From Tetradesmus obliquus (lineage: Eukaryota; Chlorophyta; Chlorophyceae; Sphaeropleales; Scenedesmaceae), in assembly GCA_030272155.1 (NCBI GenBank), contig CP126203.1, forward strand, positions 4,408,501-4,472,500: a stretch of DNA of 64,000 nt, read 5' to 3'. The notes below the pieces were generated by a model. It did no database searches, was not told the origin of the DNA, and saw only the letters and a list, made by a program, of their open reading frames with translations. Positions 889 through 53,669 of this stretch are shown in pieces; position 1 is the stretch's first letter, and each line of letters begins with the position of its first letter. The position numbers and the translations under genes are program-made.

Positions 889-3243
889 CTCGCTTGTAGG
901 AGGTGCATCAGCAGCAGCAGCAGCAGCAGCAGAAGGTGCAGCAGTGGCTGCTGCTGCTGGCGGCGGCTGGGGCAGCACCAAAAGGCTTGCATCCGGCACT
1001 CCAGGCCTACTGCAGGGCACCAGCGGCGAGGTACTGAAGCTGTGGGCCCTAGGCGTCACCTCTACTGCACAATTGGCCCCAGCCCCTCGCTGTACTGCTG
1101 CTGCTGCTGCTGCTGGGTGGGCAGATCCTGAACCTTGGACGTCATCCGCTGCTACTGCATCTAGCGGCCCACTTGTAGCTTCTTCGTGCAGCGGCAGCGG
1201 CGGTAAGCCATGGCCAAAACCAGGCAGCCCAGCCCTCCAGCCTCCTAAACCATAGGCATGCATTGCTCCGCTGCTGCTGCTGTTGCTGCTGAGGTAGCGA
1301 GCAGCAGTCTCGCTCCTGCTCCTGCCCACCACAAGCAGGTCTGCAGTATCAGCACCAAACTCATCTGCTGCTGCTGCTGCTGGCAGCCGCCGGCCTGCAA
1401 AAGCAGCCCAGCGGCCGCCGCCCGGCCGCAGCTGCTGCTGCTGCAGCTGCTGCGCCGCAGGCGCGGCTGCGCCGATGCTGCTGCTGCGCACGCTGCTGCC
1501 TGTTGCTGCGCTGCGCAGCGCCGGCTGGTGCTGCTGCAGGGTTTGCTCGTGGTGGCGCAGCAGGTTCTCAGTTAACTGCAGGCCCTGCTGCTCTGCGTCC
1601 CACAGCTTATCACTGTTGTCAGGGGCTGGGGCTGGCATGCTGGCCTCTACGCCGCTGTCTACGGAGGCCCAGGCTGCAAACAGCTTCTGGGCTAGCGCCA
1701 GGTCAGTCACGATCTGCAGGAAGCGGCGCAGTGGCAGGCGAAAGCATATCAGAAAGGCAGTGAGGAAGCATGTGCTGGGGTGTGGCTTGCCTCTCACTTA
1801 CACCTTACAGCTGACCGATGTTGCAAAAAAAAGCCGCGTCTGCAATGGCACATCCACTGGCAGGGTTGACTATGGTTTGCCTGCCGGCCAGCTGCGGTGC
1901 CCAGCCATCTAACCCCTGCTGCTTGTGCTCCTGCAACCTTCCAATCTACCACATTGCAAACACACAACACGTTGTAACAACGCAATCAAACATTTACTTA
2001 ACCCCAAACGCACCTGCCCGCCGCCGCAGCTGCATCCATGTAGCGCGCCGCACAGTTTACGCTGTGGCCATAGTACGAGGCGCGCCCCGCGTGGTCCGGC
2101 AGGATCCTGTCAGCCGCCCCGTAGCTAGCCCATGCAAAAGTAGAATAGTTATCACATAATCATACAATATAACATATAATGTAACATGTAACATGGCCCA
2201 CCTGCCCGCCGTGTGCAGCTGCATCCATGTAGCGCGCCGCACAATTTACGCTGTGGCCGTAGTACGAGGCGCGCCCCGTATGGTCCGGCAGGATCCTGTC
2301 AGGCCGCCCAGCAGCCAGGCCCATGCGCAGTCGGGGGCCGCGGAACAGTAACAAGCCTGAGGCAGGGTCTAGCACCTCGCTGAACCCTGGGAAGGACAGC
2401 GCGGCGGCTGGCCAGTCCGCATACAGCAGGGCCTCCTGCAGGTTTCGAAAAAAACGGGGCGGCGTGGGATACTGTCAGGTTTAGGGAAGGGCTTAGCGTG
2501 GTTGGCGCAGCATCAAGGGATATAAGAGAGTGTCACAGCATGTCGTGCCATGTCATGCCAAATGCCTCATGCGCCTGCGGAAAAGTAACAAGCCCGATGC
2601 AGGGTCTAGCACCTCGCTGAACCCTGGGAAGGACAGGGCGGCGACTGGCCAGTCCGCATACAGCAGCGCCTCCTGCAGGGTTGAAGGGTCAGTTAGCGTA
2701 TGTGGGGCTGTTTAGGGAAGAATGTGGGTTTGGGAAGAGGATGGGTTAGGGGACACACATGGTGGAGTGGGGCAAGTTGAGCGAGGACTGACGCTGCAGG
2801 GTTGGTGCAGGGCCATAGGTGCAGACTACAGTACAGTGAACCACATCACAGCACAATGTCTCATGCCAGGTGGTGTGTTGCAACTGCCACTGTCGGTTAC
2901 CATCTGCAATAAAACAGTTTTGGTCATCCCAATCAGCGCTGGCCGCACCTGCACCAGCAGGCACCACTGCACCGCCAGGTGTGGCTGCGTGAATGCCGCA
3001 ATGTACTTTGTGTCGCTGTCCCTGCAGCGGCACAAATAGCCATCCCTCCCAGAAATCGCCTCCAGCTGCTGCAGCATGACCTGCCGGATGGTTTTACAGA
3101 CCTCCTGAACCTCAGGGCGGCTAAACCGCGCCGTGAACACGTCAGCATCTGCCACGCTGGCGAAGACGATTGTTACTTCCGGTAGCTGCTGCAGCTCCCT
3201 GCTGCTGCTGGAGGTGGGGCTGAGGTCCATCTGGTGCGCGCCT

Positions 3244-3283
<40 letters not shown>

Positions 3284-3793
3284 ATTGGTGGAAGGCACGC
3301 AGAGGTAGCTGTTGAATTTCTTGTGCAATGCGACCTCAAGCACAATGCCTTGCTGCATTCATCGCAAAGCAAGCGCAGCGCGGCCGCTGCATACAACAAC
3401 ACGCTGACAAAACACCACAGCGCTGCACTTGCCAGGGCCCTCTCACCCGGCGCATCAAAGAAGCCCTTCTGCTTCTGCCTCCACCCGCGCTTCATGTTGA
3501 TAGGAGCAGTCCACGCAGCACACGCAGCAAGCTCCTGCGTGGACTCAGCCGCCCGCCGCATGCATGGCGCTGCAATGCTGTACACGTGCAGCAACTGCGA
3601 CTCGTCTTTCTGCTTCTTGCGCTGCCTCAGCGGTAGCAGTGAATGCTGCTGCTGCTGCTGTGCTGCGCGTGGGCTGCTTTTGCGGGGTTCCCCATCGGCA
3701 GGCTGCGCCTCTGCTGCTGCCGCTGCTGCTGCCGCTGCTGCTGCCTGTTTGTTATCGGCACTGATGCTCTTCCGCCGCTTGTCCGCAGCAGCC

Positions 3794-3828
<35 letters not shown>

Positions 3829-6800
3829 CGCTGCTGACTGCTTGTCATCTGCACTGATGCTCTTCCGCCGCTTGTCCAAAACAACCGTGGCGTGCCTGGC
3901 ACCACCTGCTGCTGCTGTTGCTGGCCCTGCTGCTGCTGCTGCTGCAGCCGCACTCGGTGAGCGTGGCTGCTTCTTTGCTGAGAATGACGCAGTGGGTGAC
4001 AGCCCTGATGCTGCTGCCGGCCCTGCTACTGGCGCTGCTGCTGCTGCTGCTGGCTCTGCTGTGAGGCCCTTGAAGCCTGGCACTTCAAAAGCCCCCATGT
4101 GAGCCACCATTGCATCGTTGTCATGGCTCACGTCCCTGAAGTCAAATGATCCTGCAAATGAGGCGGGAGAAGGCCTGCAGCAGCAGCAGCAGCAGCAGTT
4201 GACAGCATGTGTGTCATTGTCGTGGCTGACGTCCCTGAAATTGAAGCATCCTGCAAAGGACGCGGCAGAAGGCCTGCAGCAGCAACAGCAGCAGCAGCAG
4301 CAGCGGCGGTTGAGAGCATGTGTGACAAACACGGCCACCAAACATAGCAGCGCGCAACAGCCATGCCAACCACTCCGCTTCACAAGTAGCACATTCGCCT
4401 GCCCACCTGACGCAGAGCGCTGCACAGGCCACCTGCCGCTTCATCTTTTCGACGACCTGGCCCCGCATCAGGTCCTGCAGCAGTGCATCATCATAGCCGC
4501 CATCGTTGACCGTGCCCAGCACCGCCAGGGAGTCTTTGACCAGGCTGAAGGTGGGCTCATCCAGCAAGATCTGGCCGCCGTTGGCCACATCGCTCAGCAG
4601 CTCTGCAGCAACAACGGCAGGCAGCAAACATCAGGCTGCATGAGTGCGTGTGGTGTGATCTCAAAATTGGAGGTGGGTCGTCTAGCAGGATCTAGCCATT
4701 AGCCATGTCATCAGCAGCTCTGCAGTAATATTCAAATGCAGGCAGCAGAGATGTAGGCTGGTTAGCGCATGGTTGTTTGACCATGCTGCCGGTGGGCTCG
4801 TCCAGCAGGATCTGGCCCCTGTTAGCGACGTCACTCAGCAGCTCTGCAGACGCACAAGTAGAGACATCGCAAAGCAAACATGCGGTCAGCAGTGAAGTGT
4901 TAGAATGTTGACCAGGCTGAATGTGGGCTCATCGAGTAAGATCTGGCCGCCATTGGCCACATCACTCAGCAGCTCTGCAGTGCAAGGCAGGCGGCAATAA
5001 TAGTGTCGTTGGGGGTTTGGTGTGTGCATTTGACCAGGCTGAAGGTGGGCTCATCCAGCAGGATCTGGCTGCCATTGGCCACGTCACTCAGCAGCTCTGC
5101 AGGCAGGCACCAAGCAGCAGTGATTTCCTGATTGTGCTGGATTAGCACATAGTTTCAGAGTTGGCCTTGTCCAGCAGGACCTGGCTGCCGTTGGCAACGC
5201 CACTCAGCAGCACTTAGCAACACGGACAGAACAGCTTGCCACGTCACCAACAACACGGCGACAGCATTCACTTTGTTACGCATAGCAAGTCTGCAAGCAC
5301 CTTGTATGTTCAGGACGAGTGGCACACCAGATACCATGCGACCTGCGACAAAAACGCAACCATACACATGGTGCCCCACCTTTGGCGTGGTCCTTGACGG
5401 CGCAGCTCGCCACGTCACCGCCAGCCGTCAGCGGCCCCGTAGCCACGCCAATCCTCACCACCACACACATGAGCAGCAACAGACCGCGGCACACCGTGCA
5501 AAACCACAGCAACAATAGCAACTGCAGAACACGCCGCAACATGCATCAGCAGATCCACAAGCATCTTGTACTTTCTCACATTGCAAGGCCTTAGCCACAC
5601 ACATGGCGCCGCACCTTTTGCGCGGTCCTTGACAGCGCAGCTCGCCACGTCACCGCCAGCCGTCAGCGGCCCCGTATCCACGCCAATCCTCACCACCACA
5701 CACATGAGCAGCCACAGACCAGGGCTCGATGTGCAGCAACTGCACACCACACCGCATCGTGCATCAGTAGGCCCTAAAACATCTCAGTGTTTCCGGGACA
5801 ACTGACGAAGCACAGCCAGCAACCACGCCCAACCATACGCAAGGCGCCCCACCTTTTGCGCGGTCTTTCACAGCGCAGCTCGCCACGTCACTGCCAGCTG
5901 TCAGCGGCCCGGTAGCCACGCCAATCCTCACCACCACACACATGAGCAGCAACAGACCAGGGCACGATGTGCAGCAAAGACACAATGCACCACAACATGC
6001 ATCTCGGCGTTTTCTGGACAACTGACGAAGCACAGCCGGCAACCACACCCAACCATACACAAGGCTGAGCTCCTACCTTTCGCGCGGTCCTTGACAGCAC
6101 AGCTTGCCACGTCGCTGCCAGCCGTCAGCGGCCCCGTAGCCACGCCAATCCTCACCACCACGCGCACCATCTGCAGCGGCGCCTGCAGCCCCTGCAGAAC
6201 CGCTGCATGCCCCGGCGGAGTGAGCCTCCCACTACCACCTACAGCCGGAGCTGCCCTACTCAGGGTTCTGGAAAACCTCAGCGCTAAACCTGAGGCGCTC
6301 CAAAGCCTCGTACCGCTACCTTCGTGCGAGGCCTGGCGCTCCATGTTGCTATATGTGCTGACTTGTGTGCTCATCGTGCCCGTGCCGCCGCCTTCGTGTG
6401 TTATGCTAGGCACTCCTGAAGAGGATCTGCCGCTCAGAGGGGCACTGTGAGACTGCTGCTGCCCGGACGGCACCCAGCAGGGGGCAGCAGGGCTGTGGTT
6501 CGGCCCTTGCCAGCTGTCACCCTCATGCTGCTGCTGCTGCTGCTGTATGGCGGCGGCAGTTGCGGCGTCCTTGCTATGGCCGCCGCTGCTGCTGCAGGCG
6601 GCGCGGCTGTTGCCGCCGTCGAAGTGATTTAGCCGCTGCTGCTGACTCTGCCGGTGCTCAGAAGCTGAGTCATCGCGCAAGCGGTGCACATCTGCTGGCA
6701 GCTGCAGCACCCCATCCTGATCTGCTGCTCTGCTGGATGCGCCTGTTGCTGCTGCGTGTGTGCCTACATGTGTCCGCTGCTGGCTCTCAACATCATCTAC

Positions 6801-8255: not shown

Positions 8256-8312
<57 letters not shown>

Positions 8313-10591
8313 AGTTATAATGAGGGTGAAGGCTTGCAAGCAGCACAGCCGCAGCCATGCCCACACACGTTGTATCAACCAGCCGCAGCCGCATCCCACC
8401 GCAGGCGTAAGAGGGTGTACTCGGCAGCATACAATGCTCCTGCCACGCTACCAAGCCCTCAGCAAATACGTGCTAGCCCCACCTTTGCAACTGTCACCCC
8501 TCGGCTTTTCAAGATTCCACCACGGCACCAAGCCCACAGACCTCACCTTCACATCCGTCACTACGATGCTGACCGAGGCCTTGTCTCCGAGCCTCGATGC
8601 AACTGGCGCGCCCTTCAGCCGCTTGGCCTGCTGCTGCCTCTCTCTGAGCCACCGCGGCCTCGTTCTGAGGTAAACCAGCCAGGCGAAGAGCCCCGCCAGC
8701 ACAAAAGCCACACCAAAGACAGTGCCCAGGATGACTGCCTGCAGCTGGTTGCGGCTGCTGTCATTGGCGCTACCAAGCTCCTAAACAAAAACCCCTGCCA
8801 CCTAACAGCTCACCTTGACATCTGTGACCACGATGCTGACAGATGCCTTATCTCCGAGTCTTGAAGCCACTGGCGCGCCCTTCAGCCGCTTGGCCTGCTG
8901 CTGCCTCTCCCGCAGCCACCGCGGCCGCGTCCTCAGGTACACCAGCCAGGCGAAGAGCCCCGCCAGCACAAAAGCCATTCCAAAGACAGTGCCAAAGATG
9001 ACCGCCTGCAGCTGACGCCTTGTGTCCACGCTACCACGCACTAAACAACACTACGCCGCCAACCCTCACCTTGACATCTGTCACTACGATGCTGACCGAG
9101 GCCTTATCTCCGAGTCTTGAGGCAACTGGGGCGCCCTTCAGCCGCTTGGCCTGCTGCTGCCGCTCCCGCAGCCACCTGGGCCTCGTCCTTAGATAAACGA
9201 GCCAGGCGAAGAGCCCAGCCAGCACAAAGGCCACGCTGACTTCTACACAAACCTCTAGCCACAAAGCCCCGAGCAACAAAACCCCTGCCACCTAAAACCC
9301 TACCTTCACATCTGTCACCACGATGCTGACGGACGCCTTATCTCCCAAGCGCGATGCAACTGGCGCGCCCTTCAGCCGCTTGGCCTGCTGCTGCCTCTCC
9401 CGCAGCCACCGCGGCCTCGTCCTCAGGTACACCAGCCAGGCGAAGAGCCCAGCTAGCACAAAAGCCACTCCAAAGACAGTGCCAAGGATGACCGCCTGCA
9501 GCTGGTTGCGGCTGCTGTCATTGGAGCGCACGCAGGTGAGCGTGGTGCGGTTGGCGTCCCAACTTGGTTCATATCCCTGGTGAATACAAAGCATGGCAAG
9601 CATGTGCAGGGGCCATCAGCAATGGCAGTCGGCAGATACAACTGTTGCTACAAGCCAGGCGGTGGCATGACTTGCAGGATGCAAAAACAGTGCTGTACGC
9701 AGGTGAGCGTGGTGCGGTTGGCGTCCCAGCTCGGCTCGTATCCCTGCGCAGGTGCAGGTTTGACGTTTGAGTGGCAGGTGTGCAAGGGTTTGTAGAGGGT
9801 TGCCAGCAGTGTCAGGTGGCACAGAGGCATGTCGGTTCAGCGCACGCCAGGCTATGGTGTGGCGTGCAGCAACACCAATGTGCATTATTTGCACTTGCGT
9901 GCTGCAGCCGGTGCCACTGGCCAACCCTTGTCATGGAGCTGGCACTAACGAGCACCATGCAAAAACCTCCCTGGATAGGTCATCATCTTCTTTGCCTGCT
10001 GCTGCTGCTGCTACTGCTGCTGCCACTGCTTCAGCAGATGTCTGCACAATTGCCCAGTGCATGCTGTTCACGCATTCATCACTCGCAACCAGCACTCGCT
10101 GCTGCTGCTGCTGCTATTGCATGCTGCTGCAGCCTCCTTACCACACCCCGGCCGAAGAACTGCAGAAGGCACTCACGAACAAACACTCGCAGACTTGGTA
10201 CTGGTAGTAGCTGGGATCAATGCTCCACTCCTGCTCAGCCTGATCAGGCCAGATGGCTGGCAGCAGCCCGGCCTGATCCCCCAGCCCCACAGCGCTCGTT
10301 GCAGCGCACACTTCTTGCGCATTGTCAGGCTCCCTGCGCAGAATGACCTGGCGGCAGCAGCAGCAGTAGAGAAAGAAGACGAAGAAGGTTGAGTATGCAT
10401 GCTGGCAGAGAGCAGGTGCCACCGTCGTCGCAGAAGCACCACCTGCAGCAGGAACAAGACAGAGGCTGGTGAGCAAGCATGTTGTGTGATGCCTGGCAGC
10501 AGCCCGGCCTGATCCCCCAGCCCCACAGCGCTCGTTGCAGCGCAGGCCTCTTACGCATTGTCAGGCTCCCTGCGCAGGATGACCTGACGGC

Positions 10592-10659
<68 letters not shown>

Positions 10660-12111
10660 GTTGGTTATGCATGCTGGCAGCAGCGCATGCCTCTTGCGCA
10701 TTGTCAGGCTCCCTGCGCAGGATGACCTGACGGCAGCAACAAAATGACCTGACGGCGGCAGCGGCAGCAGCAGCAGCAGCAGCGGCAACAGTAGCAGCAG
10801 CAGCGGCGACAGGGGCAGCAGCATCGGCAGCACCAGCAGCAGCATGCAATGAGAGAAATGCAAGCGGAAGCACGGCAGCAGCTGCCCGGGGCCGTACAGC
10901 ACACCAAACACGCCCGACACACCCAACAAAACCCGAGAAAACCTGACCAACCTGTCAAACATAACACCTCAGACACATCCTGACACATGCTGACTCCTGG
11001 CACAGAAGTATCCATCAAGGTTCACAGTCTGCCGCGCATGGCGCTACATCAATATCTCTCTCCCCCACCTTGCATCGCATGTTGCTGGCATCGTCGCGTG
11101 GCACCATCCAATCAGAGAAGCGCAGGAAGCACGGCAGCAGCTGCTCCGGCGCGCACAGCACGCCAGCGTCAGAGGCGTTGCCGATCGTCTCTGGCGTGGT
11201 GCACTCTCGCGGGTCTGTGCAGCTGGAGTTGGTTGTCACGTTGTACGGCCGAATGATGCCTGCAAGTTTGGTGAACAACATTTGCAAAAGTATGAGTATG
11301 CACGCGCGCGCACATCAGCAATCAGGCAATCACAGTTCTGGTGTGTGCTGCAATTCCCAGCACTAGCTTTGGTCTGTGCAGCTGGAGTTGGTTGTCACAT
11401 TGTACGGCCGGATGATGCCTGCAAGTATGGCAGGTCAGCAGGTGCAGGCATGTGAGTGTGCACATGCATGCAGAATGCAACAGCAGAAGCAAAAAGTGCT
11501 GTGGTCACGTTGTACGGCCGGATGATGCCTGCAGGTTCAACAGATCAGCAATCAGGCAATCACAGTTCTGGTGTGTGCTGCAAGTGCCAGCACTAGCTTT
11601 GGTCTGTGCAGGTGGAGTTGATTGTCACATTGTAACGGCGGATGATGCGTGCACCTTGACGTTTTAACAGTTGCAGGCAGTTGAGAGCGCATGCATGCAT
11701 GATGACTCGAGTGGAGGACGTTCACCTGCGCAGGACATGCTGCTGCTGCTGCTGGCCTTGAAGAAGTGCAAGCTTACAAGCAAGCACGTCAGCCACGTCA
11801 GCAAACAGTGCAGAGAAGCGTGCCATGAACTTGCAGCTGCAGCAGCAGCAGCACCAGCAGCAGCAGGTCACCTGTGCAGGATATGCTGGTATAATTCTGT
11901 TTAAAAAGCGAAGCAACCAAACCAGCATTAAATCATTGCATTGAGATCAGGTAAATGCGAAAATTCAGATCAGGTCACCTGCACAGGACATGCTGGTGTT
12001 GCGGCCCTTGAAAGAATTGAACCTGGCCAGCAGGCCGATCTCAGGCGGCAGCTGCCCGGTGAGCCCCGTGTTGTTACTCAGATCTACGCCCTCCAAGCTG
12101 TACGACAGCCT

Positions 12112-12162
<51 letters not shown>

Positions 12163-12244
12163 CAAGCAGCAAGAGTAGCAGTAGGAGTAGCGTCAGCTCT
12201 GTGTTGTTGCTCAGGTCAACGTCCTCCAAGCTGTACGACAGCCT

Positions 12245-12289
<45 letters not shown>

Positions 12290-12371: not shown

Positions 12372-12416
<45 letters not shown>

Positions 12417-14934
12417 GCAGCAGCAGCAGCAGCTTTTCGTTGGAAAGCATTCACCGCATTGCACGTCCATGCCGTGCTTCATGGCGCACACTCGTGCAGG
12501 CCGCCAACACCAGCCAAACATGTGAAAATATTTGTCTCACCTCGGCTGTAGACATCATCGTAACATGAACACAGCACAGTCTGGCCCTGCCAGCAACAAA
12601 ACAGCATGCAGCGGCCCTGCACTCACCCAATCGCCGCAGGGATGGTGCCTACAAAGTTGTTGTTGCTTGCATCCAGCTGCGCCAGCGCGGGCAGGTGGTA
12701 CAGGTCACCGCTGAGCAGCCCTTTTGTGCCGGCACCCAACGTAGCCAAACTTGAGGAGGAAAGTATGTTGTGCCCACGCAACACACACCAATTCAAAGTC
12801 AACCGCAGCAATGACTCAGCCCTGCCAGTGACAAGGAGAATCGCAGCATCCTCCAACTCACCCAATCGCCGCAGGAATGGTGCCCACAAAGTTGTTGTTG
12901 GAGGCGTCCAGCTGAGCCAGCGCAGGCAGGTAGTACAAATCCCCACTGAGTGTGCCACTGAGCTGGTTGTCGGCGATGTCGAGGGACTGCAGGCTGCTGA
13001 GCAGCGTGATCACGGTCGGCAGCTGCGGAAGCAAGCAGAGGTGCAGCGTATAATGCAGGCAGGTGGGCAAATGTTTAACAGTGTGGGCGATGTCGAGGCT
13101 CTGCAGGCTGCTGAGCAGCGTGATCACGGTCGGCAGCTGTAAGGGGAGATAGTGCAGGGTTCAGGGCAGGCAGGCAGGCAGGCAGGGTTCAGTGAAACAT
13201 GAGAGTTGGTTTGTATCAACCTACTGATGTTGAGGGACTGCAGGCTGCTGAGCAGAGTAATCATCGGCGAAAGCTGCAGGAACAAGCAGAGGTGCAGGAC
13301 AGGCAGGCAAGTGGACAAGGCTTGTTACTTACAACCTACACACACGCGACCAGTCAGCGTGTTGCCAGACAATCCCAAGCGCCCCAGGTCAGGCGTGCGT
13401 ACAGCGCCAGCGCCTCCTGTTAAGCTATGGATTTTTAAATGTCATTTGTCATAACGTAACACCTACACACACCTGATCAGTCAGCGTGTTGCCAGGCGTA
13501 CCCAGGCGCCCCAGGTAAGGCGTGCATACAGCGCCAGCGCCTCTTGCCACTACCTTGTGGGTCATGCGTCATGCCTTCACCTTCACACATCCCTGATCAG
13601 TCAGAGCGCTGAGATGTACTGATGCTCCAGGTTGCGTGCATACAGCGCGAGCGCCTCCAAGCAAACCATGAACTCTTGATATGTTATGTCAAGTGACAAA
13701 TCACAACAACCCCACACACACCTGGCCAGTCAGCGCGTTGCCGGAGATGTCGTGATGCTCCAGGTTAGGTGCATACAGAGCGAGCGCATCTGGCACGGTT
13801 ACAAGTCATATGTCGGTTTACATACCATACGTGCGATCATGACATGTCACATAACATGTGACACACCATACCAGTTACACACACCTGACCAGTCAACGCA
13901 TTGCCGGATATGTCCAGGTGCTCCAGGTTGCGTGCATACAGCGCGAGCGCCTCTTGCAAGACTGTCACATGTCACATGCCATATGATATGTCATGACATG
14001 TGACCATCACATGTCATGTAAAATGTGACATAACATAACAGTTACACACACCTGGCCAGTCAAGGCGTTGCCGGATATGTCCAGGTGCTCCAGGTTGCGT
14101 GCATACAGCGCCAGCGCCTTGGGAAATGACCCACTGAAGCCGTTATTTGCTGCGCTGTAGGTGGTCAGCTCGCTCCAATCGCGGCTGGCAGGCTGCAGAA
14201 ACGGCAATAATACAAAGCGCAAAAGGCAGCAGGCAGCGGTTTGCGTGTCAGGAACAGAACCGGCAGTTACGTCAGGTGTGTGCAAGGTGCAGCAAGGCAG
14301 TGGTGGCTGGGTATGTGCTAGGCGGTTGCAGCTAGCTTCGGCAGCTTTGCAGGCAGTTGCGTCCAGCTCAGGTGCCAGAATATTCAATCAGTTGCGCTGC
14401 CACTTCATCCACAACTGGCTCAGCAAGCAGCGCTGATCTCCAAAAGCCGTGCAGGCGTTCCGTCTGGTACTGCTGCGTGTCCTCAAGCCACTGCCCCCCT
14501 TACCAGTGCCCCTACAAGTGCATGGCTGGCCAGATTAAGCTGCATCAGCTTCCTGCAGCGCTCCACCACGCCTGTGCGGCTAGTTCATGAGATGTCATAT
14601 GTCATGTGACATAACATAACATGACTCACACAACCGACTAGCCAACCCTTCTCACCAGTGCCCCTATGAGTGCATGGCTGGCCAGATTAAGCAGCATCAG
14701 CTTCCTGCAGCGCTCAACCACGCCTGTGCGGCTAGTTCATGACATGTCATATATCATGTGACATAACATAACATGACTCACACAACTGACTAGCCAACCC
14801 TTCTCACCAGTGGGCCTGTGAGTGCATTGCTGGCCAGGTTGAGCTGCATCAGCTTCCTGCAGCGCTCCACCACACTTGCCGGGCCCTCCAGCAGGTTCAC
14901 GCGCACATTCAGCACTGCCAACTTGCTGGCATCT

Positions 14935-17724: not shown

Positions 17725-18181
17725 CTAGTTCCAAGCCAGCTGCGAGCGCTGGCTCCAGTACTCCTTAGGAGGCTGCGCCATCTGCTGCAGCAGCTGCTGC
17801 ACAATTTCCTGCGGCAACTCCTCTGCCAGCTCCACCGCAGCAAAGTTGCTGCGTAGCTGCTGCGGGCTGGCTGCCCCGCTGAGCACCATGGGCTGGAATG
17901 GCTGCTGCAGCACACAGGCCAGCGCCAGCGCATCTACCGTGGTGTCATACTGCAGAGTGGGGTGCGGTGAGGAGGGCGTGCAGCAGCAGCAACAGCAGAG
18001 CAGCAGCAGTAGAAGCAGAAGCAGCAGGGCTGGGTGTTGTACGCAGCACGTGCAGGTGGACACTGAGAGCAGCAGCGCGGCAGCGGCAGCAGCGCTCTCA
18101 GCTTGCATGCCACATAGGCTCATACAAGGACATGCATCAACTCTTGCTTGCGAGTGCGTGGTCCGCGTTGCACCACTGATG

Positions 18182-18215: not shown

Positions 18216-21200
18216 CGCGCCCACCTGCTGTGCCGTATCCTGCAGCAGTGCCAGTCGTGCCGCAAAACCCGGGTCGCTGTTGCGCCCCGTGAGCCGGCCA
18301 TTGGCCATTGCCTCCTTGATGATGACTGATAGGCCTGCCTGGTGGGCGGCCAGCAGAGCAGGACCTGCGGCAGCAGATGCAACACACCATTTGAGGTAGT
18401 GCCAGGACCCACATGCATTTGTCCTTGAAAAGCCAACCACCCAGAGGTTGGACAACATCCAGCTGCCTCGTGACCATGCGGCTTTGCCTCCTTTGTATGG
18501 ACTGACAGGCATGCCTGGGGGGAGACCAGCAGGGCGGAGCTTACAGCAGCAAGGGTGCACCACCACAACAATCACAACGAACAGATAGACAACACTATGG
18601 TGCCTCCTGAACATGTGATGCTCGTTCTTTAGCTCTCAACATGCGCTGGCTGCAATGCTACACAGGCATTGCTGCGTATGTTTCTGAAGCTGTGCACATG
18701 CATTTCACATCAAGTGTGTTGTGACTCTAGTACGATGAGCTGCACCATGGGATATCCTGATTCTGAGGCACGTGCGCTGCATCACAGCTCATCTGCTTTA
18801 CACGCTATTAACTCTGCGACTTCCATGTCAACACCTGCAGATTACTGCAGCAGGTTCCAGGTGGCCTGCATGCTGTCTCAGTCTCACGGGCACGTGCACA
18901 CTCCAGGCTGCGTATACTCGCTTGCAGGACCGAGGCGTGCACACAATGCATGTGAGAGGACACCACAATCGCCCACCTGCAGATTGCTCCAGCAGGTTCC
19001 AGGTGGCCTGCACGATGACCCTGATGCAGATGCATTGCAATACCTGACCCAAACGCTGTTCCGATGCCACAATTGCTCACCTGCAGACTGCTCCAGCAGA
19101 TTCCAGGTGGCCTGCACGCTGTCAAACAGCAGCGCGCCATCCGCAGCTTGCGCATGCAGGGCCTGCTGGATCACAGCACCCTGCTGCTCCCCTGCAGCAT
19201 AAAAATAGTGGCACACGACGGGCACAGCAGTGAGCGTAAAACAGTAGCTGACCGTCCGGAGCTTGCGCCTGCAGCGCCTGCTGGATGACCGCAGCTTGCT
19301 GCTCGCCTGCAGCAGCAGGCAATCAGCGGCGCGGCAGCAGGGAGCAGCACAATAGTAGTGGCACGACCGTGAGTGTCAGACAGCAGCGTGCCGTCTGCAG
19401 GGCTGCACACCCGCCAGCGCCCAGCCCTTCTCAGCCTTCAGCTGTGCCAGTGCCGCCAGCACCTCAGCATTGGCCAGCAGTGGTCGAGATGCTGGTGGAT
19501 GGGTATGCGCTGTGAATGCAGCTGGCACATAAACTACGCTGTGCTGGCAGACTCTGCATGTCAACACTGCACAACACAAGCGACGCCTGCTGTGTGATGT
19601 CGTTGCTTGGTGCACGAACCAGACACTGAGAGTCCAAACGCCCAGCCCTTCTCAGCTTTGAGCTGCCCCAGAGCCGCCAGCACATTGGCATCATTGTATG
19701 GAGAACCTGCTATGCAGGCTTTGTTTATTTTTGCACGCACCGGATACTGACAGCCCGAGCGCCCAGCCCTTATCAGCTTTAAGCTGTGCCAGTGCTGCCA
19801 GCACCTCAGCATTGGCCAGCACACCACTCTCTAGCGTGGCCGAGTGGATCTGGTACAGGTCGAGGAAGGGGCCTAGGTGCTGGTCTGTCTGCAAAGCAAT
19901 GTTGGGATGCAGATGCAGTGTCCGCGTGTGCAGCAGTGAATGCGTATGTGGCAGAGTGGATCTAGTATAGGTCTAGGAAGGGACCTAGGTGCTGGTCTGT
20001 CTGCAAGCAAAGTTAAGACGCAATTGCAATGTCAACGTGTGCAGCAGTAAATGCGTACGTGGCGGAATGTATTTAATACAGGTCTAGGAAAGGACCTAGG
20101 TGCTGGTCTGCAAAGGACATCAAGAACGCAAATGTGTTTACGCAGAGAATGCTTGTGTGAGGGAGTGCATTGGTGCAGGACACAGGTGATGGTCTGTCTG
20201 CGCAGGAGAGCAGTACAAGTCAGCAAACGCAACCGACGATGTGCAGCAGTGAAGGCGTGTGTTGCTAAGCGGATTCGGTACAAGGCTGCAGGGCAGGACA
20301 TCTCCAAAGAGGCACAGGCATGTTACGGCATGCAGCAGTGAATGCATGTGTTGCGCGGCGGATCTGGTGCAGGACCAGCAAGGGACTCAGGTGCTGATCT
20401 TGTTGGACAGGCAGGAACAACGCACAATAAGGCACGCAGCAAAGAGTGTTGTCAGACAGCATGGCATGACAGGGTTGCATGACATGATTGCATGACAGAG
20501 TTTTATGGCAGCATGCGGCTACCGGCGGCCGCTCACCTCTGCAGCCTGAGTCAGCAGGTTGGCTGCTGTGTGCTCCTTCACCTCGTGGGGCTGGCCCTGC
20601 GTGTCCACTGCAGGGAGCAGCGGTAGCAGCAGCAGCAGCAGCAGCAGCAGGAGTGGCGCCGGCGGCAGCGGCAGCAGCAGCAACGTGACTACCACAGCAG
20701 CAGCACTGGTGACGTCATGGGGGTGCATTACGCCCTCTTGCCCGCTTCCTACTGCCAGGCACATTCCAAGGCATCCTGGCATCCACCAGCCAGTGACCAT
20801 ATCCAGCATGGTGTATGCAAATGAGACGCAGCTGACGGCATCAGGATGTACTGACAGACCTTGAAGCACAAGCGGCACAGCTGCAGTTTCACAAACGCAT
20901 CTATTCAAGCACCTTGCCAGCCCGCGGTGTACACGTAGCCCCACTTGCTGCCCACCACCGCACAGGCGCGATAACGCATATCGACATCGATGCCACCCAC
21001 TTGCCCCTATCCTACTGCCAGGACATTCATCAACATGCACAGGAATGCACCAGGCACCGGCCACATCTATGTGTAGCATACATGTTGCAGCACCAGCGAC
21101 GCAGCCGCAACTGCACACAAACAGCATAATGGTACACTGCACCTTGCCAGCCAGCGGTGTACACGTAGCCCCACTTGCTGCCCACCACCACCTCCTCAGG

Positions 21201-35898: not shown

Positions 35899-38488
35899 GC
35901 AGCGGAGCAGTCAGCAAGCAGAGCCATCGCAAACCGATCTTCAGCTTGCGACAGCAGCATGATTTGAGCACAGGTTGAACGCATCTGCTGCAGCCACATC
36001 TCCAAAGAAAGCTCCACTCCTCCACCACCTGTTTCTCTTCTGAGTTTTGGAAACTATATGCTAAAGCCCTGGACAAACCCTGGTCAAGCCCTGGTCAAAC
36101 CCTGGTCAAGCCCTGGTCAAACCCTGGTCAAGCCCTGGTCCAACCCTGGTCAAAGTCCTCACCTGGCTGACCATGGGCGAGGGGAACTGGCCGACGTAGT
36201 TGACTGCTGCTTCATAGCTGGCATCCAGCCGGTGCTGCACATAATGCGGCAGCTCGTTGAACTCCCTCAGCCGCCACTTGGCCAGGCTGCTCCAGCGGCG
36301 GCTGCCCAGGCTGCCTGCAGCACACGACAAAATAACACGTTACAACATAGCAAGGCACAGCAGTGGGGCAGCTTGTCATGATTACGCAGCCACCATTTGG
36401 CCAGGCTGCTCCAGCAGCGGCTGCCCAGGCTGCCTGCAGCCAGGAAAACCCAAGTCACCATGTGAGCATGACATATGAAAAGTGTGAGGTAAACACAACG
36501 TGTGAGCAACACACGGGACATGGCTAGCCTGCTCCAGCGGCAGCTGCTCAGGTCGGCAAACAGTTGACTGCACAGAACAAGAGGTTCCATGGTTCCATCC
36601 GGGCTGCAAAACTTCCCAGTGCGCTTTGTGAAGCAGATGGACGGCATCAGATGGTTCAGCTCTGGAAATCAAACCCTAAGCCTTTCAGAACCCTGGACTT
36701 TGAACCGACCAGAATCAGGGTTGATCCTCAACCCCCACCCCTCAACCCCAATCCTGTTTAACCCCTTGAACCCCAGCTCACCCGGGCTGTGGTAGAACTT
36801 CTCCGCGTGCTTCATGAAGAAGCAGTTGATGAAAGCAAAGTTTATACCCAGATCCTAAACAATCAAAAAACACTGAACCCCAGCTCACCCGGGCTGTGGT
36901 AGAACTTCTCCGCGTGCTTCATGAAGAAGTAGATGACCAGGAACAGCAGCAGGAAGGGGCTCAGCAGCAGGTTGAGGCCAGCAGCAGCCACCAGCCGCCG
37001 CTTCAGCTTCGCCTCGTCAGCCAGGAAGTCCTGCAGGCAGTATTGACAAATGTAACATGTTACTTAGTTGTTGTAACAGCAACGGCCTGCCGTCCCTGGC
37101 GAGGTGCTCTGCCTGCTTGTCACAGAGATTCGTACAACAAACAAGGTGTCGGAAGCAGCATGTACAAGCACAGAAGCAAGTGCTGTTGCGGGCGGCATGC
37201 AGCTGGCTCAACAGGCACCGCGACGCATTGATACCCTGAAACCAAAGCATGAACCCAAGCCCTATAGAAAACACACCTGTCGGATTTGGACGTGCTCGTC
37301 AAACATGGGGTCCAGCACGCACAGCAGCAATGTCACGTGTTACTTGCCTGAAATGACCTCAACCCTGACACCTAAAACGCACCTGCCGTATGTGGAAGTG
37401 CTCGTCGAACATGGGGTCCAGCACGCAGGCAAACAGGTTCCACTCCAGCGTCTTGGTCAACATGAAGCGGCGGCCTAACACCGCCCCGCAGCCGCGCACG
37501 TACAGCCCTAGCACGCCTGCGACAGCAAGCAAAACAAGCAATGAAACAAAGTCACATCTGGAACTGTGGTGTACGGCTGCCAGCATGAAGCGCCCCCCCC
37601 CCCCCCCCCCCCCCCCAGCACGGCGCCACGGCCCCGCACGTAAAGCCCGAAACTGCCTGCAACATGAAGAACAGGGTTGAATAGTTTGAGCTCCACTTCA
37701 GCGTCATGGTCAGCATGAAGCGCCTGCCTAGCACAGAACCGCAATCCCAGCACGCCTGCGGCAGCCACAAAAAGATGCTAGAAATCAGGTGAAAATTGCG
37801 AGTTGTGGTGCGCGCAGCATGGAGCGGCGCCCTAGCACCGCGCCACCGCCCCGGCACGCCTCAGAAAGCAATGACCCACAACCCACAAAGCAGTCCAATC
37901 TACAACCTCCAATGATCTCACCCACCTACTGAAGCTCATTGAGCCGCTTCCACCGGCAATGAGCGTGCACATGCTGCAGCCCCACAGAGCACGTCCAAAC
38001 CTGCATTGAGCATGCAATGTTGTAATTCCCGCACCTGCGTTGAGCATTCCAATTAGATAGTTGTCCTTGCGCATGATGCGCCCCACCACGCCCAGCTCGT
38101 CAAGGTCAACCGAGTGACATCAACAAACATCCAACCAGCACACCAAACCGCGCTCACCTGCATTGAGCATTCCAATTAGATAGTTGTCCTTGCGCATGAT
38201 GCGCCCCACCACGTCCAGCTCGTCAAGGTCGCGCGCTGCACACAGCCGGCTGCTGCGCTGCACCAGCACCAGCCGGTGCAGCAGCTCGCTCCACGTCATG
38301 CTGCGGATCTGTTGATACAGAGGCGGCCACACAGCAGCAAGGGCGAGGGGTCACAGGGTGGCAGCTGCCAACTGATGAACAGGTCAGAGCTCAGCTGTGC
38401 GGCTACACCAGCTGGTGCCACGCTGCTGTGACTTCAATCAACAAGCTGCCCAGCTGCTACTGCTGTGAGTCTAATTGTCCCTTGCTGC

Positions 38489-38563: not shown

Positions 38564-40524
38564 GACTGCTCCCGCTTGCACTGCTGCCACTACCACAGCA
38601 ACAGCTGCTGCTGCTGCTGACGCATGTGTGTGTTGCCATGCCCAGCTGGTTGTTGTGGTGATGGCTGCTGCTGCTGCTGCTGCTCCTACACCAGACGCTG
38701 CAACAAGTACTGCTGCTACTACCGGCAGCATGCCTGTCTATCGCTGATGCCTAGGTTGCTGCTGCTGCTGGTGCATCCCCACCTGTCGCTGATGCCTAGC
38801 TACTGCTGCTGCTGCTGCCGCTGCTACAACAACTGCTGCTGCTGCTGCTGCTGCTGCACCCCCACCTGTCTGTCGCTGATGCCCAGCTTGTTGTTTATAA
38901 AGTGCTTCACCTCCAGCACGTCACGCAGCTCCACCACCAGCTGCAATGCAAGGAGCAGCACAGCACCCAAAGCAGTTGAGGTGAGACATATCACTTTAGC
39001 AGCAATGCACGCAGCATGTGGGGCACGTCACGCAGCTCCACCACCAGCTGCGGCAGCGTTCCACAGCAAGGACAGCCTTGAGCGTTTGGCTGCCTACACT
39101 CTCAACCAACTGCTACGCTGCAGTTTTTACCCCCCACCTGCACTGCGCTCCACAGCCAGTACAGCCCACACAGGGCCAAATACGGTACCACCAGCAACCA
39201 TAACCCTTGCCATCAACCTGAAACTGCCCTGCTGCAATTCCCCACCCCCCACCTGCACAGCGCTCCACAGCCAGAACAGACCACACAGGGCCACATACAG
39301 CATCACCAGCAATCATAACCCTTGCCCTGAACCTAGGACTGTCCCGCTGCAGTTCCAGAAGCGCACCTGCACAGCGCTCCACAGCCAGTATAGCCCACAT
39401 AGGGTCAAATACAGCGCCACCAGGGCCACCAGCACCCCCGAGTGCTCCCTCCACGGCTGCTTATGCAGCGCCACATCCAAGATGTCGCAGCTGGCATGGG
39501 GATCGTGCGGTACCAAGCATTCGCTGCGCAGCGCTGCCCAGTTTACTGCCAGCAGCAGGCAGCCACTGAAGAGGATGGTGAAGGCCAGGGCTGTCAGGTT
39601 GAGCAGGCGACCTACAAGGATTGTTGTGAGACCCTTGTCATGCCAGTACCTGCATTAACAAAAAGGTGGTTGTGGTGAGCATCGCTGTGGAGGCAAGAGG
39701 CGAGGGCTGTCAGGTTGAGCAGGCGGCCAACCAGGATGGTTGTCAGGCCCTTGTCATGCCAATACCTGCGTTATACCAAGAAAGTAACAGTGTGGTGAGC
39801 ACAGCTGTGGGGGCGAGGGCTGTCTGGTTGAGCAGGCGGCCCACCAAAATGGGTGTGAGGCCCTTGTCGTGCTATTTGCTGTGTCATTGTTTGCAAATGT
39901 CACAGTAACCTGGCGTAGGACAAACAATTGTGAAGTTGCCATGTTGCAGAGTCAGGTTGAGCAAGCGGCCCACCAGGATCGTAGCCGCACGCTGTCGAGC
40001 CGCAACTTGCAGGTACTGCAGTCTTCACAGCTACAGGCAACAAATGCTGAACTACTGTGCCCTCCCACCTGTACACACACGCAAAACGCGTGCAGGTTGT
40101 CCATGGCTGCAAGCACTGCTGCGTGCTGCTGCGCCACGAGTTGTGTGTGCTACAGACAACAAATGCTGAACTACTTTGCCCACACACCTGTATACTCTTG
40201 TGCGGAAGGCGCCCAGGTTGTCGATGGCTACCCACTACTGCTGCTTACCCACTACTGCTGCTTACCGCCAATAAACATATTGCAAAAACAAACGTGCCCA
40301 CCCGTCCCAGCTGTAGCCTCGCGAGCAAAAGCCGCCCCGGTTGTCAATGGCGCCCCACCACTGCTGCTTATAGCTGATGATGCATCCTTGGCAACTGCAG
40401 AAAATGCCCCTCTCACCTGTACACTCGTGTGAAGAAGGCGTCCAGGTTGTCGATGGCTGCCCACTCATAGCCCTCGCCACCCAGTAGCGGCTGAGGCAGC
40501 CCCAGCTCAGCCTCCGGCAGGCTG

Positions 40525-40564
<40 letters not shown>

Positions 40565-47235: not shown

Positions 47236-47270
<35 letters not shown>

Positions 47271-49724: not shown

Positions 49725-49768
<44 letters not shown>

Positions 49769-50141: not shown

Positions 50142-50175
<34 letters not shown>

Positions 50176-53100
50176 ACAGCAACTACACAAACTTTACCCG
50201 GGAGGTGGAGCACAGCCGCACCGCGGTCTACTTCTGCGATGGCATGCACAACACCAGGCAGTTTGCACTCAAGTTCTACGCCAGCCCTGATGATTTCAAG
50301 GCAGAGATGATGGCCTACAAAGAGTTGGGGGGTAAGTCATGTGTTATTCTGTTACCTTTTGTCGATGTCTGTTACAAACCAAGCTGCTCAAGTTCTACGA
50401 CAGCCCTGATGACTTATAGGCAGAGAGGATGGCCTACCACAAGCTGGGGGGGTGAGCAGTCGGCTGTTATGTGTTATTTTGTTACATGCAAGGCTCATCA
50501 AGTTAGGTACCAGCCACTGGCTGTTGTTGCATGACAACTTGCTCACATGATACGCCAGCCATTATTGCTGCTGTTGCTGCTGCTGCCGCAGGCCCCTCCA
50601 GCAAGTTTGTGCCTGTGCTTGAGATGAGCTACCCAGGCAGCAGCAGCTACCCAACTAGTGTGCTGGTCTTTGAGCGGGGCCAGCGCACGCTGGAGACGTT
50701 GGCACGCCAGCGGCCCAGCTACTTCCAGCAGGTGACTGTGTCACGTTGTAACAGATATGTTATGTTATGTTGTTACATGTTGCTACATACAGCCAGCATT
50801 GTCATGGACTGATGATCGGGAGCACCTAATGCTGAACAACATGAGCCAGTGACCTGTAGTTTCCAATCCTACAGAGCATGATGGTTTTTGTAGGGCATGC
50901 AGGCAGCACGGCATGGCGCACGTGTTTGCAGCCAATCACTGCACCAAGTCACACAAGTTATGTGGGGCTTGCCAGGCATCTTCACTGCCGTTGTTGCTGT
51001 CGCTGCTGCGTTGCCGCCGCCGCTGCTGCTGCTGCTGCTGCCGCTGCTGCTGCTGCTGCTGCTGCTGCCAGGTTGACATCTTCCACCAGCTGGTGTCAGC
51101 GGTGCAGCACCTGCATGAGCACGGCGTGGTGCATATGGACCTCAAGCCCAGCAACGTGGTGCACTTCCCAGGTGATTGTGTCATATTGACATGTCATAAC
51201 ATGGTACATGTTATCAGTATGTTGCATGTGTTATCTGGTGCCTGTGGCAGTTCAGTGGATAGGCAACTGCACGAGCATGGCATGGTGCACAGGGACTCCA
51301 AGCACAGCAACGTGGTGCATTTCCCAGGTGGGTAGTTACACACATCTCAAGTAGCATCTGAAATAAATGCTGAACTCCTTTTTATTCAACATCTGCACGA
51401 ACTCAACATGACGCCCTGCTGATGCCTTGCTGCTGGTGTTGCTGCTGCTGCTGCTGCTGCCCTCTCTCCATCCAGAGAAGTTTGCGTGGAAGCTGATCGA
51501 CCTGGCCACCGTTGCACACATCGGGCAGCCAACAAAAGTGGTGAGCGGGACAGCCCCTGCAACTCTGTTATGACAGCAACAGGATGTCACTTTCCCATCG
51601 TTGCTCACAACGTGTGGATGCAATGCGGCTGTTGTAGGAGCTGACAAAAGTGAGCAGCATGACAGTGGACTGCGGCTGCTGTAAACCGAACTTGTTGGCA
51701 GTGTGATTGGCGTGCTCTGCAATGGGTGTGCGGTTTACGTGCTGTGGGTGCATGGCTTACAAATGCTGCCATGTATGAAAATCGTGCGGACACTGTGTCC
51801 CCGTCCACCTCATGTTGCACAGCAGGTGTACACTTGGGAGTATGTGTCCCCTGAGATTGTCGGGCAGAGGTTGTTGCCATCGGACCAGCTGCTGCAAAAC
51901 TGTATTTTATACTTTACTTGCTAAACCTGTGTTTTTTTCTAAACGTGTCACTGCAGGTGTACACTCGGGAGTATGTGTCCCCTGAGGTGGCCCAGGCAGT
52001 GGTGAGTGGCGCTGTCAGCATCACCGCTGATCCCTCCTGGGACCTGTGGGGCATCGGCATCATCATGTGGGAGCTGGCCACAGGTGCGGAAATGAGGCTA
52101 TGACCTATACCATCTGTTACAGGTCGAGGTCCTGCGTCATGTCATCTGGGGTTTGGCAAAGGTACGACAAGCAATGTACCCAAGAAACTCTGGCGTGGGT
52201 GTCAGAGCCTGAGATCCCCCAGGACCTGTGCGGTGTTGTTGGCAACATGTGGGAGCTGGCCACAGGTGCGGCTAAACCCCTCACCACTAGATTAACTAGC
52301 CTAGCAGGCTGCACCACAGGCATGCACAGCCTGTCCAGTCTGTCTCATGAGACTGATCAGTCTAAAGCTGCAGGGCGGTATACAAGTGAAGATCAAAAGT
52401 CTTTCAAGGCGTCCTTGTTCTTTTACTGTTTCAAGATTACTTGTTCAAGTTGTTCTTGATTACATGTCCATAGGTCTCCAAGGCGCGGGAAAGTGCCGAG
52501 TCAGCATGGCATGGTTGCGGAGGTGTGGTGGGACCTGCAGGGCAGCGGCTTGTGGCCCGCAGGCAAGCGGTACTTCACCTCTTATGGGTTCAAAAAGGAC
52601 ACACCAACCCAACTTGCCTGCTGCTCCTGCTGCTGCTGCTGCTGCTGTCTTTGTCTCATGTACAGGCCAGCGGTACTTCCCTCCCGAGTGGTCCATGGAT
52701 GGCGGGTGGCGCTTGTGGAGCGCGCTGTGCGGCTTCGAGCCGCTGCCCCACGAGATAGTGGACATCAGCACGATGCGGGGTGTGGACAGAGGGGTCATGA
52801 AGCTGGTGCGCTGGCTGCCACATTATTGTGTATCTGGTTTGTTTCGTGTGGATGTTGCGGTGTAATGTGTGGTTGTATAGTTTGCTGTTTGGTGTGAGTT
52901 GGTTGGGTGGCAGATGCGTCGGGCTACTGTTCCCAAGGCGGTCGATGTTTGCATAGTTGTTCTGGGCTTGTTGCATGACTTCACTCACTTCTCAACAACT
53001 ATGCAGCTGACTTCCCACAGATTTGATGCTGGTGGGTGTTGGCCAACATAGAGTGCCTGCCTCAGGCAGTGCCTGCCTGCATGCTTGCCTGTGTCATTAA

Positions 53101-53194
53101 GTCAATGTCGTGTACGTACGAGTTTGAGGACTTCTGGTACTTGCTCTGCTGTTGCTGCTGTTGCTGCTGCTGCTGCTACTGCTGCTGCTGCCGC

Positions 53195-53232
<38 letters not shown>

Positions 53233-53669
53233 TCAGGTGCGTCGGCTGCTGCAGCGCAACCCTGCGCTGCGGCCCACCCCCATGCAGCTGCTCAGCGAGA
53301 GGCTGTTCCAGGCTCGAGGTGTCACCACAACGCAGGTGAAGAAAAGCAAACATTGATTTGGGCTGACAGGACGTCCTGTCGACTGAAGCTTAGGGTGTTG
53401 GATACGTGGCAGAAGCTTAGGGTTGTAGCTGGACAGTTGCACCGTAGCTTTTGCTGCTTCTCAGTGAGATATTGTTCCAGGCACGCGATGTCACCTTCAC
53501 ACCAATCGAAGCTCAGAGTTTATTGGCAGGTTGCCAGTTATCTCCTGTCAGTGTTTTATCTGTCCCACTTTCTGCATGTCCTGTGCTGCAGGTGTCCCAG
53601 GGCAGCAGTGTGTCCCATGGCAGTGCTGGCAGTGGCCACCTGAGTGGGCCACACCCTATGGGCGACTGA
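45619..53669 (+). CDS. Fasciclin (FAS1)-domain receptor-like protein kinase (about 16 exons)
   Basis: Model: 45619-45677, 45984-46239, 46990-47143, 47545-47635, 48189-48460, 48793-48896, 48968-49108, 49420-49916, 50138-50331, 50592-50731, 51072-51171, 51476-51540, 51957-52083, 52666-52805, 53237-53335, 53592-53669. Phases close to about 838 residues. Order: signal peptide (RLVLLLIMGVCALV); an ectodomain with FAS1 signatures (TIMSSDFKDGMNLQTL, PDVTAGSAVIHFVDNLI); membrane span near 279-298 (IAAAVIVTALVLLVLLLLRK); low-complexity juxtamembrane segment; kinase domain near 545-815 with FALKF (Lys), FKAEMMAYKEL (alpha-C Glu), HMDLKPSNVV, IDLATVA in place of DFG, YVSPE and WDLWGIGIIMWEL. FAS1 domains mediate adhesion and matrix contact, so a wall- or matrix-sensing role is plausible but inferred. 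Weak points: the 48896/48968 junction has a poor donor and a 71-nt intron, and the kinase exon start may be 50102 instead of 50138. Confidence 0.78.
47770..53510 (+). repeat. Echo copies of FAS1-kinase exon ends
   Basis: Copies of the FAS1 exon end (ttgccgctgcgcaag) at 47770-47830; kinase Lys/alpha-C exon end at 50385-50460; catalytic-loop exon end at 51258-51330; activation-segment exon start (gtgtacac(t)tgggagtatg) at 51825-51880 and end (tgggagctggccacaggtgc) at 52195-52268; next exon start (aagcggtacttcacctc) at 52562-52590; penultimate exon end at 53462-53500. Each sits in the adjoining intron and retains a plausible splice site. Confidence 0.85.

What the first reader, a model, noticed from the sequence alone, without database searches (positions are those of the whole stretch)
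2020..53510. Pervasive exon-junction echoes: exon ends with their splice sites copied into the adjoining intron
At more than 40 places in four genes, 40-250 bp containing one exon end plus its splice site is repeated one to five times in the neighbouring intron. Copies occur on the donor side or the acceptor side, decay with distance, and usually stop inside the exon. I know of no standard feature type for this. It suggests a recurrent local tandem-duplication process anchored on exon-intron boundaries, with selection for keeping one working junction.
Basis: seen in the sequence. Interest (0 to 1): 0.85.

Follow-up and report, generated by a model that had tools for sequence, protein, structure and literature searches.

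The report
Exon ends copied into neighbouring introns
In this algal genome many exons have one to five decaying copies of their own end, splice site included, in the neighbouring intron; the copies look like leftovers of a recurrent local duplication process rather than working exons, and plain random tandem duplication does not explain where they sit.

Summary
With a self-trained gene model, 41 exon ends in four genes of the window have 1-5 intronic copies running to within 3 nt of the junction. It is not local: 149 of 947 predicted junctions in 344 kb from ten contigs have an intronic copy. "Decay with distance" failed (18 arrays for, 16 against, 6 ties). Copies reach about 20-150 nt into the exon but usually 3-20 nt into the intron. 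They lose GT/AG about as fast as other bases, so most are not working exons. Tandem duplication is the likely source: spacers between copies are homologous in 51 of 69 (non-independent) comparisons, and offsets cluster at 100-140 bp. But random duplication plus selection plus neutral decay, simulated on these genes, gives mostly full-length repeats (268 of 312 junction pairs) and many intron-only ones; among 53 isolated real pairs at >=80% identity there are none of either. Something makes or keeps the exon-derived half specifically. My best guess is cis re-copying of the exon end onto old duplicates; a junction-anchored duplication mechanism is bolder and not excluded.

The parts
2199..2326 (-). 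exon 3' end + donor (parent); copy at 2011-2135, offset 188
   Evidence: 91% identical over 128 columns, homology ends 3 nt past the donor
2340..2445 (-). exon 5' end + acceptor (parent); copy at 2577-2682, offset 237
   Evidence: 93% over 106 nt
4535..4608 (-). acceptor + exon start (parent); copies from about 4668, and at 4776-4849, 4908-4981, 5029-5102, 5159-5222, spaced about 120
6047..6161 (-). exon end + donor (parent); copies 5354-5464, 5595-5699, 5830-5937
   Evidence: exon part 91-93% identical
8545..9527 (-). four-copy array of an exon 3' part (exon 9304-9576 and copies 9070-9156, 8814-9005, 8547-8738); the copies differ from each other only by synonymous changes in the 150 nt compared
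   Evidence: copy-copy 0 N: 52 S summed over pairs; exon-copy 6 N: 41 S
9530..9579 (-). acceptor + exon start (parent); copy 9697-9746, offset 167
10252..10369 (-). acceptor + exon start (parent); copies 10488-10605, 10680-10741
11212..11271 (-). acceptor + exon start (parent); copies 11371-11430, 11501-11537, 11601-11653
14803..14873 (-). exon end + donor (parent); copies 14651-14721 and 14499-14569, unit 152, spacer also duplicated (97% over 86 columns)
17725..17883 (-). last 159 nt of the CDS including its stop codon; copy 17436-17602; homology stops right after TAG
19835..19888 (-). acceptor + exon start (parent); copies 19948-19999, 20058-20110 and a weaker one
35702..35752 (-). ATG9 exon end + donor (parent); copies 35566-35616 and 35322-35371
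   Evidence: two HMM exons with this segment align to one and the same segment of solved ATG9 chains
36268..36321 (-). ATG9 acceptor + 47 nt of exon (parent); copy 36387-36440, offset 119
36874..36936 (-). ATG9 exon end + donor + 15 nt of intron (parent); copy 36767-36829, offset 107; exact match ends at +15
   Evidence: spacer-flank z -0.1; z 2.2
37374..37427 (-). ATG9 exon end + donor (parent); copy 37268-37321
38155..38230 (-). ATG9 exon end + donor (parent); copy 38032-38107, 97%, no spacer-flank homology found
38916..38944 (-). ATG9 acceptor + exon start (parent); copy 39023-39051, 100%
39364..39423 (-). ATG9 exon end + donor (parent); copies at 39135-39194 and about 39253-39309
39582..39649 (-). 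ATG9 acceptor + exon start (parent); copies about 39698-39765, 39812-39872 and a weaker one
50268..50332 (+). kinase gene exon end + donor (parent); copy 50387-50451, carries an in-frame stop
51107..51174 (+). kinase gene exon end + donor (parent); copy 51263-51330
51949..51986 (+). kinase gene acceptor + exon start (parent); copy 51818-51855
52040..52089 (+). kinase gene exon end + donor (parent); copy 52222-52271

Best explanation
Small tandem duplications of about 100-150 bp arise in genes; those that straddle an exon-intron junction are tolerated because the junction next to the rest of the exon still works, so the extra copy lies in the intron (shown: position, spacing, homologous spacers in many cases, near-neutral decay of splice sites). 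Later the intron-derived half of each repeat is scrambled by substitutions and indels, while the exon-derived half stays close to its parent exon, which selection holds fixed, probably because it is re-copied from the exon in cis by template switching or gene conversion between neighbours (inferred). Longer arrays then grow by unequal exchange inside the exon-derived homology, which gives n exon ends and n-1 spacers (seen as a pattern in some arrays, inferred as a process).
For: Nearest-copy offsets: 58 of 119 at 100-140 bp, 8 below 100; exon part and spacer trade off (r = -0.38 in the 80 junctions with offset <=160, a cap that builds in some of this). Spacers of neighbouring units homologous (z>=4) in 51 of 69 comparisons; these are not independent, 13 of the 51 come from one L021 array. 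Spacer versus flank beyond the copy: z>3 in 21 of 53 single-copy cases, mean exon part 91.5% and intron part 83.4% identical plus many gap columns, a few of them CAG-rich; by another score 38 of 104, namely 32 of 67 single and 6 of 37 multi-copy. Of 20 arrays whose last copy is >=95% identical 12 keep such homology; in four of these also aligned the exon part is 95-100% identical and the intron part 76-95% with 9-48 gap columns, so the exon half tends to look younger than the intron half. Copies mostly do not work: GT/AG kept in 57 of 74 copies below 90% identity against 71.5% for ordinary dinucleotides. One copy is bounded by a stop codon instead of a splice site, which points to coding constraint of the parent as the boundary. 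Changes unique to one copy are 119 N: 97 S, between neutral (0.716 N) and constrained, as expected if synonymous changes of the exon reach some copies.
Against: No direct sign of exchange: 5 of 36 incompatible site pairs in 16 arrays, 2.8 expected without exchange, with little power. Fresh full-length two-copy duplications, which must be the source, are almost absent: 0 of 53 isolated pairs at >=80%; of 109 pairs at >=88% four have L/offset 0.85-1.3 and only one of these (L031 3788) is a two-copy junction case. 8 of 20 young arrays, among them L005 19381, L007 2680, W 38158 and W 36889, show no spacer-flank homology at z>=3 (W 36889 reaches z 2.2).
Confidence: 0.42

Rival explanations
1. Junction-anchored duplication: the copying event itself takes an exon end with its splice site and a few intron bases and pastes it about 110-130 bp into the intron, guided by splicing intermediates, pre-mRNA-templated repair or polymerase-theta-type templated insertion.
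For: Intron-side homology edges pile up in the first 10 nt of donor introns (41, against 3 in the last exon bin and 10 in the next intron bin); at acceptors the pile is weaker (20, 6 and 15). 139 of 179 hits from exons >=100 nt reach within 2 nt of the junction. 0 of 53 isolated pairs are intron-only and 0 of 53 full length, against simulation. Two very young arrays (L005, L007) have n exon ends, n-1 spacers and an unrelated flank. The spacers searched occur nowhere else in the genome.
Against: Spacer and flank are homologous in 21 of 53 single-copy cases. In young pairs the match exceeds consensus out to about +20, so the copied piece is genomic or pre-mRNA and not an exactly spliced end. One copy ends at a stop codon, not a splice site. 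No AG or GT rule at the inner end. Three intron-only pairs exist at >=88% among non-isolated pairs.
Confidence: 0.3
2. Plain random tandem duplication, purifying selection on exons, and neutral decay of everything else; the junction pattern is only visibility.
For: In the sensitive scan 103 of 129 loci span a junction where 65 are expected at random, a modest excess.
Against: Simulation on the same genes, 5000 events at each of two indel rates: junction pairs full length in 268 of 312 and 208 of 261 at >=80% identity (147 of 154 and 119 of 131 at >=88%), and 217 and 136 intron-only pairs beside them (434 and 871 events with a deleted boundary were left out, and pairs were not required to be isolated). 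Observed 0 of 53 and 0 of 53.
Confidence: 0.1
3. The copies are functional alternative or mutually exclusive exons.
For: The 8545-9527 array: copies differ by synonymous changes only (0 N: 52 S over pairs). Changes unique to a copy are 119 of 216 nonsynonymous where 0.716 is neutral, p = 3e-7. pN/pS over all listed pairs is 0.39, and 0.17 at >=95% identity, where 0.5 is expected if only the copy is free (pairs include arrays and HMM-called copies).
Against: Most copies are partial and run into spacer; some carry stops or frameshifts; GT/AG decays like other bases.
Confidence: 0.08
4. Assembly artefact or haplotype collapse.
For: None direct; offsets above 100 bp would fit a read or k-mer length.
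Against: Copies are diverged, some carry stops or frameshifts, the spacers searched are unique, and copies within 3 nt of a junction occur in stretches of nine of the ten contigs sampled, contig 2 lacking them.
Confidence: 0.05
5. Intron gain by duplication of an AGGT-bearing exon segment, the copies being parts of young introns.
For: Strong CAG|GTG and CTGCAG|G signals.
Against: Of 384 introns two have donor and acceptor surroundings that match well in register; one lies in a low-complexity repeat gene and the other ends inside an ordinary donor-side copy.
Confidence: 0.02

Closest known systems
Junction-crossing tandem duplication in a potato RdRp gene (PMC4974935; abstract read)
   Same: A tandem duplication that crosses an intron-exon boundary
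   Different: One case, where it made a new intron; here many partial copies that are removed with the existing intron
[quoted passage not shown] passages read)
   Same: Local tandem duplication plus rescue by splicing
   Different: Needs AG|GT inside the duplicated exon and gives an intron as long as the unit; no clear case in 384 introns here
[D] stwintrons by donor duplication (PMC7138796; abstract and discussion read)
   Same: A donor is duplicated within an intron
   Different: There 4-7 nt; here about 20-150 nt of exon come along, and acceptors are affected as well
Tandem duplications and inserts from repair of staggered breaks (PMC5730883; passages read)
   Same: Duplicated segments of tens of bp at one break
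   Different: No tie to splice junctions in the passages seen

Membership tests
Ordinary local tandem duplication | Whole unit repeated, homology length about equal to offset when young | tested here: not met
   0 of 53 isolated pairs at >=80%; simulation 268 of 312
Ordinary local tandem duplication | Intron half of the unit also duplicated | tested here: inconclusive
   51 of 69 spacer pairs in arrays, but 21 of 53 single copies and 12 of 20 young arrays
Intron gain by AGGT duplication | Donor and acceptor surroundings alike at an offset equal to intron length | tested here: not met
   two high matches of 384 introns, neither convincing
Alternative or mutually exclusive exons | Copies keep splice sites and reading frame under selection | tested here: not met
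   57 of 74 against 71.5% control; stops and frameshifts. Exception: the 8545-9527 array; partial constraint overall
Alternative or mutually exclusive exons | Spliced into mRNA | not testable with these tools
   no RNA data
Introner or other mobile element | Spacer or insert repeated elsewhere in the genome | tested here: not met
   Three spacers and one whole intron found only their own locus; only these four were searched, and that search skips very common words
Gene conversion between neighbours | Mosaic copies, incompatible sites | tested here: inconclusive
   5 of 36 against 2.8 expected; few informative sites

The most novel reading that the evidence does not exclude
A genome-wide, ongoing mutational process is tied to splice junctions: the exon end and its splice site, at both donors and acceptors, are copied in one step about 110-130 bp into the intron, so that splicing or co-transcriptional RNA guides DNA duplication and lengthens introns.
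Probability: 0.27. Interest if true: 0.92.

Novelty: new variant of a known kind. Interest (0 to 1): 0.62.

Why it matters
If the exon end is preferred at birth, splice junctions would be sources of directed duplication and a direct route to intron growth, testable in a lab-cultured alga. If instead the exon halves are renewed in cis, exons act as templates that keep dead intron copies fresh, a natural assay of short-tract conversion. Either way exon-end copies mislead gene prediction (my HMM called several as exons) and may corrupt annotation of such genomes.

Tried and rejected
A splicing-exact model (exon end joined to a cryptic GT or AG) fell because young pairs match beyond the splice consensus out to about +20. 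Motif-driven breakpoints fell because donors without CAG, such as CCCGG|GTGAG, also have copies. AG or GT at the inner end of the copied piece: no enrichment in 78 donor-side and 60 acceptor-side copies. Crossover between diverged haplotypes fell because two-copy pairs show about as many nonsynonymous as synonymous changes (my hand sum over roughly thirty pairs listed) and several copies are broken. My own early reading that spacers are never homologous was wrong: BLAST missed diverged, gapped homology that direct alignment shows. Distance decay was not supported. Pfam gave no match for three pieces of the presumed cyclase part of the LRR gene, so that label is recalled only. The search of PDB with the aldo/keto reductase model gave no hit at E<=0.001. 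Literature searches (of which 7, 8 and 72 returned nothing) listed no title on pervasive exon-end copies in introns; this covers only the open library and only listed results. PMC5966456 (passages) lists Tetradesmus obliquus with GC 57% and mean intron 462 bp; in PMC7590803 (passages) the word intron does not occur in the main text.

Full report
Setting. The window is 64 kb of contig 13 of a 104.66 Mb genome in 17 contigs. Its GC is 56.4%. By GC, size and long introns it fits Tetradesmus obliquus (PMC5966456, passages: GC 57%, mean intron 462 bp), but no tool named it. I trained an HMM gene finder on the window and 200 kb from contigs 1-5 and later applied it to 80 kb from contigs 6-9: 344 kb, 19 stretches, ten contigs. 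It learned donor CAG|GTGAG and acceptor CTGCAG|G. It has no RNA support and calls some copies exons. Genes: a leucine-rich-repeat protein (a cyclase part is my recollection, not confirmed by Pfam), an aldo/keto reductase, ATG9 and a protein kinase, and GTP cyclohydrolase I.

92 self-pairs at E<=1e-6, 89 direct. 41 exon ends in four genes have 1-5 copies reaching within 3 nt of the junction, after I dropped by hand nine of 50 HMM junctions that belong to copies. Repeat pairs end near predicted splice sites in 88 of 202 cases, with 45.3 +/- 8.3 under rotation and a maximum of 75 in 1000 (the first 264 kb). Elsewhere 70 junctions in 13 of the 18 other stretches show the same (one tandem-repeat gene in L023 left out). 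In total 149 of 947 predicted junctions have an intronic copy. In a test that spans the junction, 143 of 476 do; the 476 have at least 45 nt of exon, 70 nt of intron and 1.3 kb of sequence on each side, and 39 more were set aside for microsatellites.

Anatomy. On the intron side edges pile up in the first 10 nt of donor introns (41, against 3 in the last exon bin and 10 in the next intron bin) and less sharply at acceptors (20, 6, 15). In young pairs matching exceeds the splice consensus to about +20 and is then near chance (0.28-0.39 against 0.24-0.30 at +21 to +45). The nearest copy lies 100-140 bp away in 58 of 119 junctions and under 100 bp in 8. Inner ends have no AG or GT rule. Decay with distance was not found: 18 against 16 with 6 ties.

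Are the copies alive? Mostly not. Below 90% identity GT or AG survives in 57 of 74 copies, against 529 of 740 for ordinary dinucleotides. Stops and frameshifts occur. Against full neutrality: changes unique to one copy are 119 nonsynonymous of 216 where 0.716 is expected, p = 3e-7, and pN/pS over all listed pairs is 0.39, falling to 0.17 at >=95% identity, where 0.5 is expected if only the copy is free. This fits copies taken from, or renewed by, a constrained exon at different times, or a minority of real exons. One array, 8545-9527, has only synonymous differences among copies.

Tandem duplication or not? My first alignments suggested that intron flanks were never shared. That was too strong. 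Neighbouring spacers in arrays are homologous in 51 of 69 comparisons, 13 of the 51 from one array. In single-copy cases spacer and outer flank are homologous at z>3 in 21 of 53, with mean exon part 91.5% and intron part 83.4% identical plus gaps; in multi-copy arrays the outer flank matches the spacer in only 6 of 37. So a duplication of the whole 100-150 bp unit lies behind many cases. In a sensitive scan 103 of 129 loci span a junction, 65 expected at random; intron-only 2 (10.9 expected), intergenic 6 (29.3), exon-only 10 (15.1), gene edge 8 (8.4).

But the simple model fails. I simulated random duplications on these genes with a viability filter and neutral decay. At >=80% identity junction pairs were full length in 268 of 312 (indel rate 0.2) and 208 of 261 (0.5), beside 217 and 136 intron-only pairs; events whose boundary was deleted (434 and 871 of 5000) were left out, and the BLAST cut-off differed slightly from that used on the data. 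In the data none of 53 isolated pairs at >=80% is full length and none is intron-only; 29 pair exon with intron, 18 are called exon on both sides, 1 is intergenic, 5 are other mixtures. Among all 109 pairs at >=88%, arrays included, one two-copy junction pair is near full length, and three intron-only pairs exist, each beside other pairs. 8 of 20 young arrays show no spacer-flank homology at z>=3, and the L005 and L007 arrays have nearly identical units but an unrelated outer flank. The exon-derived half is therefore either made alone or kept fresh.

Choice. I favour duplication followed by renewal of the exon half in cis, because it explains weak old homology of intron halves beside strong young homology of exon halves, the unit size, and the copy bounded by a stop codon. 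Its weak points are the missing fresh duplications and no mosaic signal (5 of 36 against 2.8). Anchored copying explains the missing duplications but not the residual intron homology or the stop-codon case. Three spacers and one intron that I searched in the genome found only their own locus, so they are not mobile elements. Intron gain by duplication is not supported.

Known work. Junction-crossing duplication is known as a single case (PMC4974935, abstract), duplication-born introns in flies (PMC2891723, passages), and donor duplication of 4-7 nt in yeasts (PMC7138796, abstract and discussion). The searches listed in Tried and rejected listed no report of pervasive exon-end copies.

Noticed in passing
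window 8545-9527 (minus): Four copies of a membrane-helix-like exon part (label recalled) that differ only synonymously among the copies and read open in my gene model: likely real tandem or alternative exons.
   Followed up: partly
window 17436-17602 and 17725-17883: End of the aldo/keto reductase CDS with its stop codon is copied downstream; homology stops right after TAG; the copy has a net 8-nt insertion.
   Followed up: partly
L007:2627-2959 (minus): Three 100% identical acceptor-side exon starts with identical 83-nt spacers (in an elongation-factor-like gene, label recalled).
   Followed up: partly
L006:9320-9859: Five donor-side exon ends at 118-bp spacing, 97-98% identical, with an unrelated flank after the last (ClpP-like gene, label recalled).
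   Followed up: partly
L017:1-1135: Tandem array outside predicted genes with a 191-bp unit, about 91% identical.
   Followed up: no
window 26629-26679 / 29306-29356: Inverted 51-bp pair, 98% identical, 2.7 kb apart.
   Followed up: no
window and sampled stretches, introns: Very strong acceptor consensus CTGCAG|G, a palindrome, in a genome full of CAG/CTG runs.
   Followed up: no
L014:6096-6166 and 6302-6372 (16096 and 16302 in joined L013+L014): 71-bp exact repeat 206 bp apart, almost wholly outside predicted exons; it begins TGTAACG and ends near CGTTACA, inverted to each other.
   Followed up: no
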